Source: an uncultured Thomasclavelia sp. (lineage in GTDB: Bacteria > Bacillota_I > Bacilli_A > Erysipelotrichales > Coprobacillaceae). Taken from it: a stretch of 64,000 nucleotides of DNA. A program made the translations under genes and the position numbers. This document shows, piece after piece, positions 310-45,190 of the stretch. The DNA lies in the NCBI RefSeq assembly GCF_944324745.1, contig NZ_CALUXO010000018.1:1-64000 (forward strand), read 5' to 3'. Positions within the stretch are counted from its first letter, which is position 1, and every line of letters begins with the position of its first letter. The notes below the pieces were generated by a model. That model was not told where the DNA came from and made no database searches. It was given only the letters and a program-made list of their open reading frames with translations.

Positions 310-1575
310 ATGCTTAAAATCCACCGTTTTAATTGTGCTGGTCTTGATGTTCACAAGAACCTTATTGTTGCCACCATTGGTATCACTGACAAGAAAACTC
401 GTGTCACTGAATATATTCAAAAAGTTTTCTCTTCTCTTAACTATGATCTCTATAACCTTAAAAACTGGCTTATTGAGCACAAATGCTTTGATGTCTGCAT
501 GGAATCTACCGGTAAATATTGGATCCCTGTCTTCAATATTCTTGAGACTGAATCTAAAATGAATATTGTCCTTGTTCATCCTAAATATGTCAAAGCTATC
601 AAAGGCAAAAAAACAGACAAGAAAGATTCCAAATGGATTTGTGATCTTTTCAAACATGATCTTCTCAAATCATCTTTTATCCCATCTAAGGATATTCGTG
701 AATTAAGAAATCTCTCTCGTTACCGCTTCAAGCTCATCTGTATGCGTACTTCTGAACGGAATCGTTATCAGAATTCTATGACCGTTTCCAATATCGCTCT
801 TGCTTCTGTTGTTTCTGATCCTTTTGGAAAAACAGCTAAAGCCATAATGAATGAAGTTCTATCTACTGAAGCTATTGATGAAGCTAAAATCACAAAACTT
901 ATACATGGCAGCTGCAGAAACAAAGACAAAATAATTGAATCTCTTAAAAATTCCAAGATTGAGCCCGATCAAAGATTTAAGATGACAGAAATTCAATCAC
1001 ATATGAATGAACTTGATAAACATATTGAAGCTGTTGAAATAGAAATCATCAAACGTGCTTCCAGATACTTTGATGATTTCATCCATATTACGGAAATTGA
1101 TGGAATACAGCTTATGTCTGCTATTCTTATCATTTCTGAAATCGGTGTTGATATGACACAATTTGAAACAGATAAACAGCTATGCTGCTGGGCTGGAGTC
1201 TCTCCTGCCAATAATGAAAGTGCAGGAAAGAAAAGATCAGTTCGTATCAGCAAAGCCGGGCAGTATCTTAAACCGGTATTAGTACAATGTGCATTGGCAG
1301 CCATCAGAAAGAAAAACAGTTATTTTGGTCAAAAGTATACAAGGATCAAGAAAAGAAGAGGACACAAGAAAGCAATCATAGCTATCGCAAGAATGATGCT
1401 TGTCAGTATTTATCACATGATTCTTACTGGAGAAAAGTTCAATCCTTCAGACTACGAATCATTTAAGGATCCAAAGCCACAAAGAGAAAAGAATAATTAT
1501 ACAGTTGAGACAGCACTGGACTTTCTAAAATCACAGGGATTTGATGTATCATCTATTCAAGAAATTCCTAAATAA
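310..1575 (+). CDS. IS110-family transposase (DEDD recombinase)
   Basis: A 421-residue transposase of usual family length. The N-terminal RuvC-like DEDD domain shows D13 (LDVHK), E65 (MESTG), D103 and D106 (KTDKKDSKW). A coiled middle section follows. The C-terminal Transposase_20 domain (about 255-345) carries the EIDGI and CWAGVSP motifs and S304 in NNESAG, the position of the family's catalytic serine. All key residues are present and the frame is open, so it may be active. It starts at ATG 310 with AAGGAG inside a hairpin (285-302). Known of the family: the enzyme excises a circle and inserts it under guidance of an element-encoded RNA. Confidence 0.93.
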   Translation: MLKIHRFNCAGLDVHKNLIVATIGITDKKTRVTEYIQKVFSSLNYDLYNLKNWLIEHKCFDVCMESTGKYWIPVFNILETESKMNIVLVHPKYVKAIKGKKTDKKDSKWICDLFKHDLLKSSFIPSKDIRELRNLSRYRFKLICMRTSERNRYQNSMTVSNIALASVVSDPFGKTAKAIMNEVLSTEAIDEAKITKLIHGSCRNKDKIIESLKNSKIEPDQRFKMTEIQSHMNELDKHIEAVEIEIIKRASRYFDDFIHITEIDGIQLMSAILIISEIGVDMTQFETDKQLCCWAGVSPANNESAGKKRSVRISKAGQYLKPVLVQCALAAIRKKNSYFGQKYTRIKKRRGHKKAIIAIARMMLVSIYHMILTGEKFNPSDYESFKDPKPQREKNNYTVETALDFLKSQGFDVSSIQEIPK

Positions 1576-36832: not shown

Positions 36833-37162
36833 ATGCGGATTTATTTGATTATCGGGATCGTAGTAGTAGTTATATTATTATTGCTTTTAATTATTTTTTT
36901 AAGAAAAAGAAATCGACGCCCAAAATATTATATATTGATTGTTAATTTTGATGATGGATATTTTTATGATTTAGCTGCTGATGAACGGTTTAATAAATTA
37001 GCCAGCTTTGAAAAAAATGGGGATGGATTTATTGCTAGAACGCATTTAAATGAAGTTCAGTTGAAAAAAGAAATTGGTCAGATTTTAGACATGGATCTGG
37101 CAAAAGTACACGTTATTATTAAAAGATGGTGGCTAAATCGCAATCAGGAAGATTTTATGTAA
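36833..37162 (+). CDS. small single-pass membrane protein, unknown
   Basis: A 109-residue protein not recognised. One strong N-terminal helix (about 2-22) is followed by a basic stop-transfer run (RKRNRRPK), giving a soluble domain of about 80 residues containing VNFDDGYFYD. GGAGGTAAT precedes ATG 36833; an in-frame upstream start at 36812 is less likely. It is monocistronic with its own terminator. Confidence 0.7.
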   Translation: MRIYLIIGIVVVVILLLLLIIFLRKRNRRPKYYILIVNFDDGYFYDLAADERFNKLASFEKNGDGFIARTHLNEVQLKKEIGQILDMDLAKVHVIIKRWWLNRNQEDFM

Positions 37163-37163
37163 G

Positions 37164-37187
37164 GCATGAAGCAATTCATGCTTTTTG
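37164..37187 (+). terminator. terminator
   Basis: GCATGAA (37164-37170) pairs with TTCATGC (37175-37181), followed by TTTTT. Confidence 0.8.
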
Positions 37188-37254
37188 TATTTGTTAAATT
37201 ATTTACTGGTTTAGATAGTTAAAATTTGTCAATACATTTAATGGAGGCGATGAA

Positions 37255-37428
37255 ATGATCGATCAAGTTAAATTATTGGCAGGAGCCCAGGATATAAATG
37301 GGATTTTTTTACCTATAGATGAGATTTATATTTTAGTATCAACTGGTTATACCCATAGTATTTTAGAAAATCGAGTTCGAAAACAATATTATGTCAACAA
37401 TAAATACATTGATTTCAAGTCTGAGTAG
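37255..37428 (+). CDS. small protein, unknown (57 aa)
   Basis: A 57-residue frame opening MIDQVKLLAG and ending YIDFKSE. GGAGG stands eight bases before the ATG and a terminator overlaps its stop, so it looks like a complete small gene. It may belong to the remains of the element integrated near tRNA-Arg. No family recognised. Confidence 0.55.
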   Translation: MIDQVKLLAGAQDINGIFLPIDEIYILVSTGYTHSILENRVRKQYYVNNKYIDFKSE

Positions 37429-37446
37429 TCAATCAGACTTTTTTAT
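37418..37446 (+). terminator. terminator overlapping the small gene's stop
   Basis: AAGTCTGA (37418-37425) pairs with TCAGACTT (37433-37440), followed by TTTT. Confidence 0.75.
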
Positions 37447-37504
37447 CTAAAAACAACTTCCAATAATGAAAGTTGTCAGTATCATAACAGGGAGGTGATT
37501 AAAA

Positions 37505-37693
37505 ATGATTGATCCAAAAGATTATCCATTTCATGTTAAGTGGCTTGGTGGGATAGAAGAATTTGATGATTATATTAACTCATGGAAAGAAGCCGCACCG
37601 TGGGATAATGAAAATCACATAAAAGAAATATTAGATGGAGAAGAACAAGCACAGGTTAGTATGTCTATGTGGTCCAACCCATATATGCGATAA
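37505..37693 (+). CDS. small acidic protein, unknown (62 aa)
   Basis: A 62-residue Trp- and acid-rich soluble protein (EEFDDYINSW, EAAPWDNENH) not recognised. GGAGGTGATTAAAA precedes the ATG, an excellent ribosome binding site. It is followed 32 bases later by another 62-codon gene. Possibly cargo of the decayed integrative element. Confidence 0.65.
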   Translation: MIDPKDYPFHVKWLGGIEEFDDYINSWKEAAPWDNENHIKEILDGEEQAQVSMSMWSNPYMR

Positions 37694-37725
37694 CCAATAA
37701 AGTTTAATATAAGGAAGTGTTTTAA

Positions 37726-37914
37726 ATGACTGAAAAAGAAAAAGAACAAGAATATAAAAGATTGTGTATTAAATTAGGTTTTATTCCGTCAGAATATGAG
37801 CCTGATACATCAAAAGGTGTTTTTGAAGACGGCAATATGTATAATCCATTTAAAAAATTAACGTATGATGAATTAATGTTTTTATATGATAACGGTTATT
37901 TAGATAAAAAATAA
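37726..37914 (+). CDS. small charged protein, unknown (62 aa)
   Basis: A 62-residue soluble protein beginning MTEKEKEQEYKRL and ending FLYDNGYLDKK, with a mostly helical look. AAGGAAG precedes the ATG. No similarity to its 62-residue neighbour was seen. Same probable origin. Confidence 0.6.
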   Translation: MTEKEKEQEYKRLCIKLGFIPSEYEPDTSKGVFEDGNMYNPFKKLTYDELMFLYDNGYLDKK

Positions 37915-37962
37915 AACTCCGGTTATTCATAATTAAGCCACCAATAAAGGAGTGATAAGGTC

Positions 37963-38864
37963 ATGAGTATAGAAAATGACCTAGTAAGAAGAAAAAAGCC
38001 GTTATGTCTTTGAGATAAATTTTACCTATAAATGTTAATGGTATTACCAGGCGGTATTGGAAATCAGGCTTTACTACTAAAAAAGAGGTTCAGGAGCACG
38101 AGACACTGATCAGGGCTGAGGTTAAGGAAAAAGGCACGATGAAAAAAGATAGTCTCAAGATCCTTGATTGATGTCTATCAGTAATTTTTAGACTTTGGAG
38201 CAAGTCAGTACCAGGAAAATACTATAAAAAATATAGTTAATTATCACTATTTCAAAGTTGTACTTATCAAAATGCTTGATTATGCCTCGCTACAGGGCTA
38301 CTTCAATATGGTATTGAGACAAATAAAAACATCAGGAAAGCACTAAATTGCATTATAAAATACACTTTTAAAGTTGGTTATATTAGTAACAATCGTAACT
38401 GTCACTGGTAAGGAAAATGCTGGAAACGTTGATAAAATACTTGATCAACAAGGTGTTTTGATTTTGGTAGATGCTCTTATAGATAAAAGCATTTTTGACC
38501 TGGATAATGATATTATTCATGCAGATAAAAAACTAATCTGCAAAGAATTAAAGAAAAAAGACTTTAAAATTTCCCATGAATGAAGTCCAAAAATCTAATT
38601 CCCCTACCTGGTATTCTTAAAGATATTATTAACGGTTTATGGTCAATCCATCTAACAAGGCTATTTGCGACGTAGAGGGCTTTGTATGGGCATAGATTAG
38701 AATACTAGATATTTCTTTTAATTTCTTATATGCTAAGACATACCTATGTTACAATGCTGGTAATTAATATTGTTGATTTAAAAACTGTGCAGGATTTAAT
38801 GAGACATAGTAATATCAATACTACTATGAGCATTTACACGCATATTAAAAAAAGCATTAATTAG
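37963..38864 (+). pseudogene. tyrosine integrase remnant
   Basis: No open frame spans this region, but translated pieces follow a phage/ICE integrase from start to end. About 38029-38160 gives the arm-type DNA-binding domain (INVNGITRRYWKSGFTTKKE). Around 38500-38580 FDLDNDIIHADKKL resembles the core DID motif. About 38600-38645 reads IPLPGILKDIINGLW. The segment 38727-38864 gives LRHTYVTML (HxxR), DLMRHSNI (His) and IYTHI (catalytic Tyr), ending in a stop. Several stops and shifts lie between. It lies just beyond the 3' end of tRNA-Arg, the usual place for such an integrase. Confidence 0.8.
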
Positions 38865-38907
38865 AGGTTAGTATTTTTGAAAAAAATGTGGTAAAAACAT
38901 CAGATAA

Positions 38908-38950
38908 ACAAAAAGCCCTCAACTAGAATTGGCTCTAGAATGAGGGTTTC
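38908..38950 (-). terminator. terminator of tRNA-Arg
   Basis: On the minus strand CCCTCA is paired with TGAGGG (38916-38921 with 38941-38946) and an inner 5-bp stem (38923-38927 with 38934-38938), followed by TTTTTG. Confidence 0.8.
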
Positions 38951-38982
38951 AAGCAATTTTATAAACTTTATAGATTTATATT

Positions 38983-39057
38983 TGGCATCCCTAGTAGGAA
39001 TCGAACCTACAACTTAACCTCCGGAGGGTTACGTGATATCCATTTCACTATAGGGAC
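38983..39057 (-). tRNA. tRNA-Arg (anticodon CCG)
   Basis: The minus strand folds as a complete 75-nt cloverleaf: acceptor GTCCCTA with TAGGGAT (a G-U at 1-72), D stem GTGA/TCAC, anticodon stem TAACC/GGTTA with loop CTCCGGA (anticodon CCG, reading CGG), T arm GTAGG-TTCGATT-CCTAC, discriminator G and encoded CCA. A terminator follows. Its 3' end faces the integrase remnant, so it was probably an attachment site. Confidence 0.95.
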
Positions 39058-39291
39058 ATTTCTTGATTAGTATAACATTTATTTTAATAAAAATAAATAA
39101 CAACTGAATAATTTTTTTATTTTATCAAAGAAAAAAGTATAAAGCTAAATGAAAAAAGGGTAGGCTAATTAAAAAAATCATGCTATGCTATTTTTAATAA
39201 AAAAGTTAATAAAAATGAATGGATTTTGTTGCTTCAATCGTATTATTAGTGAAAAGAGTTAGATTTACTAAATAATCGAGGAGGGATTTTG

Positions 39292-39666
39292 ATGAAAAAA
39301 ATTATTATTAGTTTATTAACTGGAATTGGATTGTTAGGATTTGGAGCCAATGTGATCATGGCTGATGCACCAGCTAACAGTAGTACTAATCAAGGAGGTA
39401 CTGCTACGGTAACTGAAATTACTGGTACTAATTGCAATCATGTTGATAGTGATGGAGATGGTATTTGTGATTATTGCCAGGCAAATTGTGGAAACAGTCA
39501 GGAAAATTATCAATGTAAGCATCATGATGAAAATGGTGATGGTATTTGTGATAATTGTAATGAAAGTTGTCCTCACTATGGCAATACTGGCACTACTACT
39601 AGTTCAACTAGCTATGGTCATCATGAAAATGGACATAATGCAAGACACCATGGTAATCATCATTAA
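39292..39666 (+). CDS. secreted Cys/His-rich repeat protein
   Basis: A 124-residue protein with a signal peptide (about 1-25, ending near MADA). Two copies of one unit follow: C48-x-H50-x4-DGDGIC59-x2-C62-x3-C66 and C75-x-H77-x5-GDGIC86-x2-C89-x3-C93. Each has six conserved metal-type ligands around an Asp/Gly calcium-loop-like turn. The last 17 residues are His-rich (YGHHENGH, RHHGNHH). I infer metal binding, probably Zn or another transition metal, outside the cell. GAGGAGGG precedes ATG 39292. The ECF sigma gene starts 14 bases later, so they form an operon and this protein is a likely regulon member or sensor partner. Confidence 0.8.
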   Translation: MKKIIISLLTGIGLLGFGANVIMADAPANSSTNQGGTATVTEITGTNCNHVDSDGDGICDYCQANCGNSQENYQCKHHDENGDGICDNCNESCPHYGNTGTTTSSTSYGHHENGHNARHHGNHH

Positions 39667-39680
39667 TAAAGGCTAGTTTA

Positions 39681-40163
39681 ATGCGTAGTGAACATGAATT
39701 GAATCGGGTTATTGATCAATACGGTGATACTGTTAGACGAATTTGTCTGCTTTATTTAAAAAATGAAGCTGATAGTGAAGATATTTTTCAAACAGTTTTT
39801 TTGAAGTATGTTACTAGTACCACTAAATTCGATAGTTCGGAACATGAAAAAGCCTGGATTATTCGGGTTACTATCAATAACTGCAAGGATTTACTTAAAA
39901 AGTTTTTTCGTCGAAAAACAGTGTCACTTGATGATTTGATTGAAAAACCCAGATCTTTAAGTGATGATCATCGTGAAGTGATTGAAGCGGTGTTGTCGTT
40001 ACCGCAAAAGTATCGAGATGTTATCTATTTACACTATTATGAAGGTTATACAGCACCAGAAATTAGTCAAATTCTTGGTAAAAATGTTAACACTGTTTAT
40101 ACACTCCTGACTCGTTCCAAGAAAATGCTGCGAGAACAATTAGGGGGTGATTATGATGGATAA
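39681..40163 (+). CDS. ECF-type RNA polymerase sigma factor
   Basis: A 160-residue sigma-70 family protein with region 2 (DQYGDTVRRICLLYLKN, DSEDIFQTVFLKY, EKAWIIRVTINNC) and region 4 (LPQKYRDVIYLHYYEGYTAPEI, VNTVYTLLTRSKKML), and no region 1 or 3. It overlaps the next gene by eight bases (ATG inside its final codons), the usual coupling of an ECF factor with its anti-sigma. Its target promoters are unknown, but autoregulation of this operon is expected. Confidence 0.93.
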   Translation: MRSEHELNRVIDQYGDTVRRICLLYLKNEADSEDIFQTVFLKYVTSTTKFDSSEHEKAWIIRVTINNCKDLLKKFFRRKTVSLDDLIEKPRSLSDDHREVIEAVLSLPQKYRDVIYLHYYEGYTAPEISQILGKNVNTVYTLLTRSKKMLREQLGGDYDG

Positions 40164-40887
40164 AAAGATCCAAGAAGCTTTTGACCAGATTCAAGTTGAA
40201 GATCGTTTAAAAGATAAAACTAAAGCTTATATAGTAAAACAAACCAAGAATTATACTAAAAGTAAACAATTTCATTTTTATCGTTTAATTCCATTAGCAG
40301 TATCTTTGATATTACTGATAATTGGTGGGTATTGGTTATATTTTGTTCCAACAGTAGCTATCAGTGTTGATATTAATCCGTCAATTGAACTAGGTATTAA
40401 TCGTTTTAATCAGGTTGTTTCTGTTGATAGTTATAATGATGATGGTAAGTCATTATTAGAATCATTGGATCTTAAATATCGAGATTATCAAGATGCGATT
40501 GATTCAATAATCAATAATGATCAGGTCATTGCTTATTTATCTAATGATGAAGTGATGACAATTTGTGTTATAGGTGATGAAAATAACCAGTCTAATCAAA
40601 TTTTATCGAATCTTGAAACAGTTACTAATGATCAAAGTAATACTTATTGTTATCATACTAATCATCATGAGGTTAATGATGCTCATGAATTGGGATTGTC
40701 GTATGGTAAATACCATGCATATTTAAAACTTCAGGAGTTGGATCCTAGTATTACGATTGATGATGTTCAAAATATGTCAATGAAAGAAATTCATCATTTG
40801 ATTGAATCACTTACATCAAGTAATGGAAGTGCTGAAAGTGGCGAAAGTAGTGAACATGGTCACCATCATGGTCAACACCATGAATAA
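40156..40887 (+). CDS. RsgI-like transmembrane anti-sigma factor with His-rich tail
   Basis: About 243 residues. A short cytoplasmic N-terminus (1-43), one helix (44-62), then the RsgI periplasmic fold beginning VAISVDINPSIELGIN. N74-P75 matches the Asn-Pro bond at which RsgI proteins cleave themselves. A conserved HELGLSYGKYHAYL / LDPSITIDDV helical part follows. The C-terminus ends EHGHHHGQHHE. Most RsgI proteins partner SigI and have carbohydrate-binding ends; this one partners an ECF factor and ends in a probable metal-binding tail like that of the first gene product. ATG 40156 fits the GGGGG site; ATG 40153 is possible. Confidence 0.83.
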   Translation: MDKKIQEAFDQIQVEDRLKDKTKAYIVKQTKNYTKSKQFHFYRLIPLAVSLILLIIGGYWLYFVPTVAISVDINPSIELGINRFNQVVSVDSYNDDGKSLLESLDLKYRDYQDAIDSIINNDQVIAYLSNDEVMTICVIGDENNQSNQILSNLETVTNDQSNTYCYHTNHHEVNDAHELGLSYGKYHAYLKLQELDPSITIDDVQNMSMKEIHHLIESLTSSNGSAESGESSEHGHHHGQHHE

Positions 40888-41430
40888 AAGGATTTTAACT
40901 AAAATCCTTTTTTGTAACATAATAAATCGATATTGACTAAAAAAATAAAAAATCCAGCAATATTTAATCAATGATGTATCAATGATCTTTAAATAACCGG
41001 CTCCAATGATCATATCACAAATCAGTAATAGTAAAAGAGAAATAAAAAGATGATCTTTATTTTTATAAGCAAAAAATAAATTTAGAAGACTGTAGGAAAG
41101 ATAAATAAGCGCTAGAGCTATCAGTGGATCAACTATTAAAAGAATACATAAAATAAAAGGAAAATATTGCTGGTAGTTTAATAGTTTTGAATATTGAATC
41201 TGAACCAAAATAAAAAAGAAAATACCAATAGTGTAGTGATGAGTAAATAATAATAGATAATCACCAATTAACATGTAAAAAAATGTTTTTATCATCTGAA
41301 TATTTTTGATAGTGTAAAAACTATAGATTAAATGAACGATCGTTGTCAGCAGTTTAATGCTGTTGCTATCTTTATTGAGAAAATCGAAAATGATAAAGAT
41401 AATAAAAAGAATGAAATTTAAAACGAGCAT
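40816..41430 (-). CDS. YhhN-like multi-pass membrane protein
   Basis: A 204-residue very hydrophobic protein with about seven helices. FYMLIGDYLLLF, IGIFFFILVQIQYSKLL, LICDMIIGAGYL and FYFFSQYRFI line up with the YhhN/TMEM86 (lysoplasmalogenase) pattern of GDxLL, FxxGxxxFxxxHxxY, SDxxL and YxxxQ. The match is by eye and moderate. Its last 30 codons run through the convergent terminator and antisense to the anti-sigma gene, an odd C-terminus. No strong RBS is seen before the ATG. Confidence 0.55.
   Translation of the reverse strand: MLVLNFILFIIFIIFDFLNKDSNSIKLLTTIVHLIYSFYTIKNIQMIKTFFYMLIGDYLLLFTHHYTIGIFFFILVQIQYSKLLNYQQYFPFILCILLIVDPLIALALIYLSYSLLNLFFAYKNKDHLFISLLLLLICDMIIGAGYLKIIDTSLIKYCWIFYFFSQYRFIMLQKRILVKILLFMVLTMMVTMFTTFATFSTSIT
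40886..40916 (+). terminator. terminator of the ECF operon
   Basis: AAAAGGATTTT (40886-40896) pairs with AAAATCCTTTT (40901-40911), followed by TT. Confidence 0.85.
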
Positions 41431-42430: not shown

Positions 42431-42560
42431 CTATAAAAGGGAGTAGCTGACACAATAGTGTTTACGATTTCGTCAATACGATGATTTATCATCCGGAACG
42501 TGATTAAACAGCGAGACTTTTATTGCAAAAATCGATGCAATAAAAGTGCTCGCTTTTATT
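42431..42560 (+). promoter_or_regulatory. yybP-ykoY manganese riboswitch
   Basis: The leader carries the conserved parts of this class in order: AAAAGGGAGTAGCTGA (42435-42450), CGTCAATACG (42471-42480), ATCCGGAAC (42491-42499) and AAACAGCGAGAC (42507-42518), then a terminator. Known of the class: it binds Mn2+ and turns on Mn exporters. The expression platform seems to be the long hairpin at 42511-42553, whose 5' arm overlaps the last aptamer element. Confidence 0.85.
42511..42560 (+). terminator. riboswitch-controlled terminator
   Basis: GCGAGACTTTTATTGC (42511-42526) pairs with 42537-42553 with a single bulged C, followed by TTTTATT. The 5' arm shares GCGAGAC with the riboswitch, allowing Mn2+-dependent antitermination. 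Confidence 0.85.
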
Positions 42561-42583
42561 GTGGAAAAAGAGGAGAAATGAAA

Positions 42584-45190
42584 ATGAAGGCTTATTACAA
42601 CGAGAGCAAAACGGAAGTTAGAAAACGTGTTAATGGGTCGTTAAAACCATTGACAGACCAGCAAGTTAAGGCTAATCAAGAAAAGTACGGGTTAAATGAG
42701 CTGGTAGAAGCAAAAAAGAAAAGCTTATTCAAAGTTTTTCTAGAACAGTATCAAGATTTTTTAGTTATTATTTTAATTATCGCGGCGATTATTTCGGGGT
42801 TTTTAGGTGACTTTGAAAGTACGATCGTAATTTTAATCGTTATTACGATCAACGCCATTTTAGGAACTGTTCAAACAGTTAAAGCGGAACAGTCATTAAA
42901 CAGTTTAAAAGAATTATCTTCACCAAACGCTAAAGTTTTAAGAAATGGACAAATCATTGAGATTCCTAGTAAGGAAGTAACTATTGGTGATGAAGTTCAT
43001 CTAGAAGCTGGTGATTTTATTCCAGCAGACGGTCGTATTTTAGAAAATGCTAGTATGAAAGTTGACGAAAGTGCTTTAACTGGTGAAAGTGTGGCGGTTG
43101 AAAAAGACACTGATGTAATTGAAGGAGAAGTTCCATTAGGTGATCGAACTAACATGGTTTATTCTGGAAGTTTTGTTACTTATGGACGGGGTACTTTTTT
43201 AGTAACTGCTATTGGTATGGATACTGAAGTTGGTAAAATTGCGCAATTATTAAAATCAACTTCTGAAAAGAAAACACCATTACAAGTTAACTTAGATAAT
43301 TTTGGTAAAAAATTATCAATTATCATTATCATTTTCTGTGCTATTTTATTTGGAATTAATATTCTTCAAGGTGGTAATCCTGGAGATGCCTTTATGTTTG
43401 CAGTTGCTTTAGCTGTAGCTGCCATTCCGGAAGCATTAAGTTCAATTGTTACGATCGTGTTATCATTTGGAACCCAAAAGATGGCTCGTGAAGGGGCAAT
43501 TATTCGTAAATTACAGGCTGTTGAAGGTTTAGGTAGTGTTTCTATTATTTGTTCTGATAAAACTGGTACCTTAACTCAAAATAAAATGACAGTTGAAGAC
43601 TACTATGTCGAAGGTCAAAGAATTCCAGCTGATCAAATTGATCCAAATATTCCGTTCCATAAAGACTTAATACGTTTAAGTATTTTATGTAATGACTCAT
43701 CTAATGTAGATGGAAAAGAAATTGGTGATCCAACTGAGACAGCGTTAATTAATTTAAGTCAAAAATTAGGTGTTCCAGCCAGTAGAGTTCGTGGTGTTTA
43801 TCCACGTTTAAGCGAATTACCATTTGATAGTGATCGTAAAATGATGTCAACTTTACATCAATTAAAAGATGGTTATACTATGATCACTAAAGGTGCGGTT
43901 GATGCTTTAATTGATCGTGTAAAATATATTCGTAAAAATAATCAAGATGTTGCTATCACGGATCAAGATAAAGAAGATATCTTGAAAATGAACTTGGAGT
44001 TTTCTCAAGGAGGACTTCGGGTCTTAGCGTTTACTTATCGTCGTTTTGATGAAGAAAAAAACTTAGATTATGATGATGAAAATGATTTAACTTTCTTAGG
44101 GTTGATTTCAATGATGGATCCACCTCGTGAAGAAAGTGCTGCTGCGGTTGCTGAAAGTAAAATGGCTGGTATTACACCAATCATGATTACTGGAGATCAT
44201 AAAATTACAGCTGCTGCTATTGCTAAAAGAATTGGTATTTTAACTGATATGTCACAAGCTGTCGAAGGTAGTGCTATTGATAATTTAAGTGATGAAGAAT
44301 TACAAAAATTTGTGGAAGATAAACGCGTTTATGCTCGTGTTTCTCCAGAACATAAAATTAGAATCGTTCGTGCCTGGCAAGATAAAGGTAATATCGTTGC
44401 CATGACAGGGGATGGTGTTAATGACGCCCCAGCTTTAAAACAGGCTGATATCGGAGTAGCTATGGGAATTACTGGTAGTGAAGTTTCAAAAGATGCTGCT
44501 GCCATGGTTTTAACTGATGATAACTTTGCTACAATCATTAAAGCAGTTGAAAATGGTCGTAATATTTATGCCCATATCAAAGATGCAATTCAGTTCTTAT
44601 TATCTGGTAACTTTGGAGCAATTCTAGTTGTTTTATATGCTTCACTTTGTGCTTTACCAGTTCCATTTGAACCAGTGCATTTATTGTTTATCAACTTATT
44701 GACTGACAGTTTACCTGCAATTGCTTTAGGTTTAGAGCCACATAGCAGCGCTGTTATGAAAGAAAAACCTCGTCCAATGAATGAGTCAATTCTAACAAAA
44801 TCATTCTTAACTAGTATTGGATTGGAAGGTTTGGTTATTTCAATCATGACAATGATTGGCTTTATGATTGGTTACCAGGAAAATGCTGTTTTAGCTAGTA
44901 CAATGGCTTTTGGTACTTTATGTTTATCAAGATTAGTTCATGGATATAACTGTAAATCAAAAACACCAGTATTGTTCAAAAAAGGTTTCTTTAATAATAT
45001 CTATTTACAAGGGGCTTTCTTAATTGGCTTCATATTAATCACAAGTGTTTTAGTTATTCCATTCTTTGATACAATGTTTAAAGTACAAACTTTATCATTA
45101 CAACAATTTGTGCTTGTATTTGGTTTAGCTTTAGCTAACTTACCAATTATTCAAATTCTTAAATGGATTAGAAGTCGTTTTAGTAAATAA
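42584..45190 (+). CDS. P-type ATPase, probable Mn2+ (or Ca2+) exporter
   Basis: An 868-residue P2A ATPase. It shows cation_ATPase_N (1-70), actuator TGES (about 166-169), M4 AAIPEAL, phosphorylation site DKTGTLTQNK (D at about 325), hinge TGDGVNDAP (about 609) and M6 NLLTDSLPAIALG. Sequence alone gives 'calcium-transporting ATPase', but the manganese riboswitch directly upstream argues for manganese export, as for YoaB and MgtA of lactococci and streptococci. AGGAG is eight bases before ATG 42584. Longer in-frame starts (42500) lie within the riboswitch. Confidence 0.93.
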   Translation: MKAYYNESKTEVRKRVNGSLKPLTDQQVKANQEKYGLNELVEAKKKSLFKVFLEQYQDFLVIILIIAAIISGFLGDFESTIVILIVITINAILGTVQTVKAEQSLNSLKELSSPNAKVLRNGQIIEIPSKEVTIGDEVHLEAGDFIPADGRILENASMKVDESALTGESVAVEKDTDVIEGEVPLGDRTNMVYSGSFVTYGRGTFLVTAIGMDTEVGKIAQLLKSTSEKKTPLQVNLDNFGKKLSIIIIIFCAILFGINILQGGNPGDAFMFAVALAVAAIPEALSSIVTIVLSFGTQKMAREGAIIRKLQAVEGLGSVSIICSDKTGTLTQNKMTVEDYYVEGQRIPADQIDPNIPFHKDLIRLSILCNDSSNVDGKEIGDPTETALINLSQKLGVPASRVRGVYPRLSELPFDSDRKMMSTLHQLKDGYTMITKGAVDALIDRVKYIRKNNQDVAITDQDKEDILKMNLEFSQGGLRVLAFTYRRFDEEKNLDYDDENDLTFLGLISMMDPPREESAAAVAESKMAGITPIMITGDHKITAAAIAKRIGILTDMSQAVEGSAIDNLSDEELQKFVEDKRVYARVSPEHKIRIVRAWQDKGNIVAMTGDGVNDAPALKQADIGVAMGITGSEVSKDAAAMVLTDDNFATIIKAVENGRNIYAHIKDAIQFLLSGNFGAILVVLYASLCALPVPFEPVHLLFINLLTDSLPAIALGLEPHSSAVMKEKPRPMNESILTKSFLTSIGLEGLVISIMTMIGFMIGYQENAVLASTMAFGTLCLSRLVHGYNCKSKTPVLFKKGFFNNIYLQGAFLIGFILITSVLVIPFFDTMFKVQTLSLQQFVLVFGLALANLPIIQILKWIRSRFSK

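What the first reader, a model, noticed from the sequence alone, without database searches (positions are those of the whole stretch)
39292..40887. Possible new metal-sensing module: Cys/His-repeat secreted protein + ECF sigma + His-tailed RsgI-like anti-sigma
Seen: an operon of a secreted protein with two Cys-His/DGDGIC repeats and a His-rich end, an ECF factor, and an anti-sigma factor with the RsgI autocleavage motif (NP at 74-75) and its own His-rich end. Known: RsgI normally pairs with SigI and reads polysaccharides through its C-terminal domain. Inference: here the outer end reads metal, perhaps by sharing metal with the secreted partner, and signals across the membrane by the RsgI cleavage route.
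Basis: partly seen in the sequence, partly recalled or inferred. Interest (0 to 1): 0.8.

Follow-up and report, generated by a model that had tools for sequence, protein, structure and literature searches.

The report
Self-contained sigma-factor cassette with matched tails
In this bacterium and many other gut bacteria, a small portable set of three genes makes a Cys/His-rich protein that is exported from the cell, a gene switch for it, and a membrane 'brake' on that switch whose outer tail matches the exported protein's tail, which looks like a tiny sense-and-respond loop, possibly for metals, that has not been characterised.

Summary
Window 39216-40887 carries a promoter and three genes: a secreted Cys/His protein with two DxDGDGICDxC repeats and a His-rich end, an ECF sigma factor, and a membrane anti-sigma with an RsgI-type self-cleaving domain (Asn74-Pro75) and a disordered His-rich end. 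It is a conserved cassette: in 55 loci from Erysipelotrichales and Clostridia the anti-sigma, the ECF and a secreted Cys-containing protein occur together. In the genus it is a discrete insert beside tRNA-Arg, absent from congeners. A near-invariant ECF-type promoter (TGAA[T/A]G-N17-CGTAT) precedes the operon. In 12 module genomes the module's own promoter is its best match, and the window genome has no other, so the regulon is probably only this operon. His content of the two tails co-varies across modules (37 both rich, 12 both poor, 6 discordant; independent contrasts r=0.59, 48 modules), while other RsgI-type tails lack His. A third of modules are not His-rich at both ends, so metal sensing is plausible but unproven. 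Best reading: a feedback loop in which the anti-sigma tail reads the same ligand or site as the secreted protein. Metal is the likeliest ligand here; cell-wall targeting is the main rival. New variant of RsgI-type signalling.

The parts
39216..39255 (+). Autoregulatory ECF-type promoter: -35 TGAATG (39216-39221), -10 CGTAT (39239-39243), conserved downstream TATTAGTGAAAA
   Evidence: Found upstream of 38 distinct module loci at fixed spacing; only match in the window genome to the extended motif at up to 3 mismatches, reversed control 0
39280..39285 (+). Ribosome binding site GGAGGG
   Evidence: Read directly from sequence; inference
39292..39666 (+). Secreted Cys/His-repeat protein (124 aa): signal peptide, two C-x-H-x(n)-DxDGDGICDxC-x3-C repeats, His-rich C-terminus
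   Evidence: no Pfam family; DxDGICD-coding pattern found only inside the module in 11 module genomes, none in 4 congeners without it
39681..40163 (+). ECF sigma factor (160 aa)
   Evidence: Sigma70_r2 45 bits, Sigma70_r4_2 57 bits; sigma70-ECF TIGR02937 85 bits
40156..40887 (+). Membrane anti-sigma factor: cytosolic N-terminus, TM helix about residues 45-63, RsgI_M/SEA-like self-cleaving domain (N74-P75), disordered His-rich tail about 225-243
   Evidence: PF23750 103 bits; AF2 pLDDT 89 with residues 232-234 and 236-243 below 50; all ten PDB matches with E<=0.001 are RsgI
40375..40380 (+). Codons for Asn74-Pro75, predicted self-cleavage site
   Evidence: 54 of 57 module anti-sigmas keep NP; solved RsgI chains start at the aligned Pro
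40885..40912 (+). A/T-rich inverted repeat followed by T run, probable terminator
   Evidence: Sequence AAAAGGATTTTAACTAAAATCCTTTTTT; not reported by the terminator scan, whose rule asks for three G-C pairs

Best explanation
The three genes form a portable, self-contained feedback loop. The anti-sigma holds the ECF factor at the membrane. Its RsgI-type (SEA-like) outer domain cuts itself at Asn74-Pro75 but the halves stay together. When the disordered outer tail is engaged, the halves separate, RseP cuts in the membrane and the ECF is freed. The ECF then transcribes essentially only its own operon, so the output is the secreted Cys/His-repeat protein plus more sigma and anti-sigma. The secreted protein's tail matches the anti-sigma's tail, so both probably bind the same extracellular ligand or site: the secreted protein buffers or occupies it, and the anti-sigma tail reads how much is left free. 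In His-rich versions such as the window's, a transition metal (Zn, Ni or Cu) is the likeliest ligand, with Ca2+ in the DxDGDG loops probably structural. Shown by computation: gene content, domain identity, cleavage-site conservation, cassette conservation, single-promoter regulon, tail co-variation. Inferred: cleavage, RIP, ligand identity, buffering.
For: The 55 loci with the ECF and a secreted Cys-containing protein upstream of the anti-sigma (50 with at least 4 Cys). No other gene recurs around 24 loci apart from ABC-type proteins at varied positions. Discrete insert: in five congeners tRNA-Arg is followed directly by the genes that flank the module in the window. One promoter per module and no other good site: the two extra strict-pattern hits in the window genome lie inside genes. 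RsgI fold and cleavage motif. RseP present. His fraction of the two tails: Spearman 0.62, contrasts r=0.59, p=8e-6, n=48; pooled 0.69, n=55, against 0.02 for a control with the sigma's C-terminus and 0.65 after removing GC. Tails of RsgI proteins of other architecture: 1 of 29 His-rich.
Against: No biochemical data. Metal specifically: modules that are not His-rich at one or both ends (18 of 55) still keep the cassette, and those checked keep the promoter. The co-variation was seen first and tested afterwards; the small set fetched later was not significant alone (n=7, rho 0.38). Gly content co-varies as well (contrasts r=0.42), so general tail style is a factor. Cys165 and His177 of the outer domain, candidate metal ligands, do not co-occur preferentially. 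No metal transporter or metal-resistance gene is attached. Three anti-sigmas have lost the NP motif.
Confidence: 0.45

Rival explanations
1. Cell-wall gap sensor. As reported for B. subtilis RsgI, the anti-sigma's disordered tail detects loosened peptidoglycan and pulls the self-cleaved halves apart; the secreted protein's similar tail directs it to the same gaps. His and Arg serve as positive charge or wall affinity, not as metal ligands.
For: RsgI fold and cleavage site. Tail is disordered. Other versions are Gly/Asn/Gln/Lys/Arg-rich. A paper by Brunet et al. [quoted passage not shown] that it reports wall-gap sensing through the tails of RsgI and PBP1 in B. subtilis is from memory.
Against: His, not total positive charge, is the feature that co-varies: contrasts for H 0.59, for H+R 0.18, for R 0.20, for K 0.16. 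The output carries conserved Cys and Dx[DN]xDG loops. No wall enzymes in the regulon.
Confidence: 0.3
2. Autocrine signal. The secreted protein is itself the inducer: it binds the anti-sigma outside and switches the operon on, a positive density-sensing loop.
For: Secreted protein is co-transcribed first and is the only clear output. The two tails co-vary.
Against: Secreted proteins differ greatly in sequence and repeat number, unlike known peptide signals. At least one two-gene module, the second in Claveliimonas bilis (L192), has the promoter directly before the sigma and no secreted gene.
Confidence: 0.12
3. Calcium or redox sensing through the secreted protein: DxDGDGICD loops bind Ca2+ and the Cys pairs respond to oxidation; His tails are incidental.
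For: Dx[DN]xDG is a known calcium-binding linear motif (PMC3123361); 35 of 55 secreted proteins carry the loop with Cys.
Against: 20 of 55 partners lack the loop; the Ca-ATPase downstream in the window is also present in congeners without the module, so it is not linked.
Confidence: 0.1

Closest known systems
RsgI/SigI systems (B. subtilis RsgI; C. thermocellum RsgI1-9)
   Same: Outer domain fold, Asn-Pro cleavage motif, single TM helix, disordered outer region, likely RseP step (PMC12203970)
   Different: Partner is an ECF factor, not SigI; no sensor domain such as a carbohydrate-binding module beyond the tail; the operon includes a secreted partner; cytosolic N-terminus does not match the RsgI_N family
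CnrYXH nickel/cobalt system of Cupriavidus metallidurans
   Same: Three-gene logic: ECF, membrane anti-sigma and an extracytoplasmic third protein; metal is thought to bind CnrX and make CnrY release CnrH (PMC4598750)
   Different: CnrY and CnrX have no RsgI-type domain and act by a conformational switch; resemblance is of logic only, and metal response is untested here
ECF/RsgI_M pairs with PepSY repeats in the same family of bacteria (e.g. L004, L008)
   Same: ECF partner and the RsgI_M domain with NP
   Different: Long PepSY-bearing ectodomains, no His tail, no secreted Cys/His partner, poor score to the module profile
RsiV/SigV and RsiW/SigW
   Same: ECF factors in Firmicutes released by intramembrane proteolysis of the anti-sigma
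   Different: No self-cleaving RsgI domain; broader regulons (from memory)

Membership tests
RsgI-type (SEA-like, self-cleaving) anti-sigma factors | RsgI_M / SEA-like outer domain | tested here: met
   PF23750 103 bits; Foldseek top matches all RsgI, TM to target up to 0.79
RsgI-type (SEA-like, self-cleaving) anti-sigma factors | Asn-Pro at the cleavage position | tested here: met
   N74-P75 aligned to chain starts of solved cleaved RsgI; 54 of 57 relatives
RsgI-type (SEA-like, self-cleaving) anti-sigma factors | Self-cleavage occurs | not testable with these tools
   Needs protein
Canonical SigI/RsgI pair | Partner is SigI | tested here: not met
   Partner is ECF with regions 2 and 4; no SigI above cut-off in the genome
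Canonical SigI/RsgI pair | RsgI_N cytosolic domain | tested here: not met
   No RsgI_N match at E up to 1
ECF sigma factors (group IV) | Only sigma regions 2 and 4, about 160-200 aa, autoregulation from own promoter | tested here: met
   (autoregulation inferred from promoter conservation)
Metal-sensing ECF modules (CnrYXH type) | Metal binding by the outer protein and metal-dependent sigma release | not testable with these tools
   His/Cys composition and co-variation only
EF-hand/thrombospondin-3-like calcium loops | Dx[DN]xDG loop in a defined fold | tested here: inconclusive
   Linear motif present twice; EF-hand Pfam only 10.8 bits, below cut-off; AF2 model pLDDT 45

The most novel reading that the evidence does not exclude
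A widespread, undescribed class of one-operon homeostats in gut Firmicutes in which a self-cleaving anti-sigma factor and a secreted protein carry co-evolving metal-binding tails, so the cell measures free extracellular metal by competition between its own secreted buffer and its own receptor, with a regulon of a single operon.
Probability: 0.3. Interest if true: 0.8.

Novelty: new variant of a known kind. Interest (0 to 1): 0.58.

Why it matters
It would extend RsgI-type self-cleaving signalling from SigI and polysaccharides to ECF factors with a dedicated secreted partner, and would give many gut bacteria a small, autonomous extracellular sensing loop that can move as a three-gene unit. The fixed, almost unique promoter makes it easy to test with a reporter. 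The matched tails make a concrete, checkable claim about how a disordered receptor tail gains specificity.

Tried and rejected
A link to the calcium P-type ATPase at 42500-45190 was rejected: it and its neighbours are in place in congeners without the module. A wider regulon was not supported for the strict and extended motif: the other two hits in the window genome are inside genes, and the recurrent genus-wide hit TGAAAGAATTAGARAAAATGAATCGTATTA also occurs in genomes without the module and looks coding. The first extended-motif scan used the wrong spacing and is void; one search replaces it. A conserved fourth gene was not found. A Cys165-His177 metal site was not supported. Prediction of the secreted protein gave no usable model. 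No described version of this module turned up in the papers searched, which cover open-licence papers only. The key RsgI self-cleavage papers were not held.

Full report
What is there. On the plus strand, a secreted Cys/His protein (39292-39666), an ECF sigma factor (39681-40163) and a membrane anti-sigma (40156-40887) follow each other with gaps of 14 and -8 bases. The ECF has regions 2 and 4 only. The anti-sigma carries the RsgI_M domain (103 bits), no RsgI_N, and nothing foldable after it. The AlphaFold2 model from 57 relatives has mean pLDDT 89, with a disordered end (residues 232-243 mostly below 50). All ten significant structural matches are RsgI proteins. A profile search of the PDB sequences aligns Pro75 with the first residue of chain B in RsgI1, RsgI2, RsgI6 and RsgI9, that is, with the observed self-cleavage point. 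The secreted protein has no Pfam family and is the most His- and Cys-rich gene of the window; the anti-sigma has the second most His-rich end.

It is a conserved cassette. Searches of 40 and 295 genomes from the order and its families, 299 from Lachnospiraceae and 391 from Clostridia gave loci that I read gene by gene. In 55 loci the anti-sigma is preceded by the ECF and by a small secreted Cys-containing protein (50 with at least four Cys). A few further loci have the ECF but no recognisable secreted gene. The partner's sequence varies widely: 35 of 55 carry a Dx[DN]xDGxCD loop, others have CxxC or Cys/His repeats of other kinds, yet composition and place are kept. In 11 genomes with the module, a DNA pattern for DxDG[IV]CD occurs only inside it; four congeners without the module have none. 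No further gene travels with the three.

It is a discrete insert. In five species of the genus without the module, tRNA-Arg(CCG) is followed at once by a small membrane protein, a diacylglycerol-kinase-like gene and, where the locus reaches that far, a calcium ATPase. In the window and in G002 the cassette sits between the tRNA and that membrane protein; in G006 it sits after the kinase gene. G005 keeps only a decayed fragment of a divergent anti-sigma elsewhere. The window's anti-sigma is closer to that of an uncultured Ruminococcus bin (55-56%) and of Claveliimonas bilis (48-49%) than to some same-family homologues (25-39%). Together this suggests gain and loss, probably with lateral transfer.

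The regulon looks like one operon. Upstream of the secreted gene, 38 distinct promoters share TGAA[T/A]G-N17-CGTAT with further conserved bases and a downstream TGAA. The strict pattern occurs in the window genome three times, of which two are inside genes. The extended pattern with up to three mismatches occurs once in the window genome, at the operon, with none for the reversed control, and in the other 11 module genomes the module promoter is the best or equal-best hit. Chance-level hits also occur in congeners without the module. A diverged target promoter could still be missed.

The tails are matched. In 48 modules the His fraction of the last 30 residues of the anti-sigma tracks that of the secreted protein (Spearman 0.62; independent contrasts on a tree of sigma plus anti-sigma core, r=0.59, p=8e-6). 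With seven more modules the correlation is 0.69; 37 have at least 3 His in both, 12 in neither, 6 discordant. The sigma's own C-terminus shows no such relation (0.02), correction for GC leaves 0.65, and RsgI proteins of other architecture are almost never His-rich (1 of 29). Gly co-varies too (0.42 by contrasts), total positive charge does not. The pattern was noticed before it was tested, and the seven later modules alone are not significant, so it needs an independent repeat.

How it most likely works. From work on RsgI (PMC12203970; self-cleavage papers known from memory and not held): the outer domain cuts itself, the halves stay together until pulled apart, then RseP and a cytosolic protease finish the anti-sigma. 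The genome has RseP and no SigI above cut-off. The sensor here can only be the domain itself or the disordered tail. Because the tail is matched to the secreted product, and the product is the only output found, I infer a homeostat in which both bind the same thing. His-rich tails and Cys/His repeats make a transition metal the first candidate; the His-poor modules and the wall-reading role reported for disordered RsgI tails keep the wall rival alive. I put the shared-ligand homeostat at 0.45 overall, and about 0.3 that the ligand is metal and the class is new.

Known or new. RsgI-type domains, ECF factors and three-part metal sensors (CnrYXH) are known; the paired arrangement with a co-varying secreted partner and single-operon regulon was not found in the open-licence papers searched. 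I file it as a new variant of a known kind.

Noticed in passing
window 38730-38864 and 37162-38983: Next to tRNA-Arg, on the other side from the module, a short ORF (MLRHTYVTMLVINIVDLKTVQDLMRHSNINTTMSIYTHIKKSIN) looks like the end of a tyrosine integrase, in a gene-poor stretch: probably a decayed integrated element.
   Followed up: no
L192 1826-3119 (Claveliimonas bilis, second locus): Two-gene variant: promoter directly before the ECF, no secreted gene, and a long Gly/Asn/Gln/Lys tail with no His on the anti-sigma.
   Followed up: partly
L004, L006, L008, L010, L021: ECF/RsgI_M pairs with PepSY repeats are common in this family; these anti-sigmas pair with ECF factors rather than SigI.
   Followed up: partly
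L080 (Lachnospiraceae): The secreted partner has an unusually regular array of C-x(n)-FVDxDGDGICDxCG units with CxxC knuckles, the clearest repeat version for biochemistry.
   Followed up: no
L191 1986-2183: Decayed fragment of a divergent module anti-sigma in G005, a congener without an intact module.
   Followed up: partly
window 310-1575: Transposase-like ORF (looks like the IS110 family) at the start of the window.
   Followed up: no
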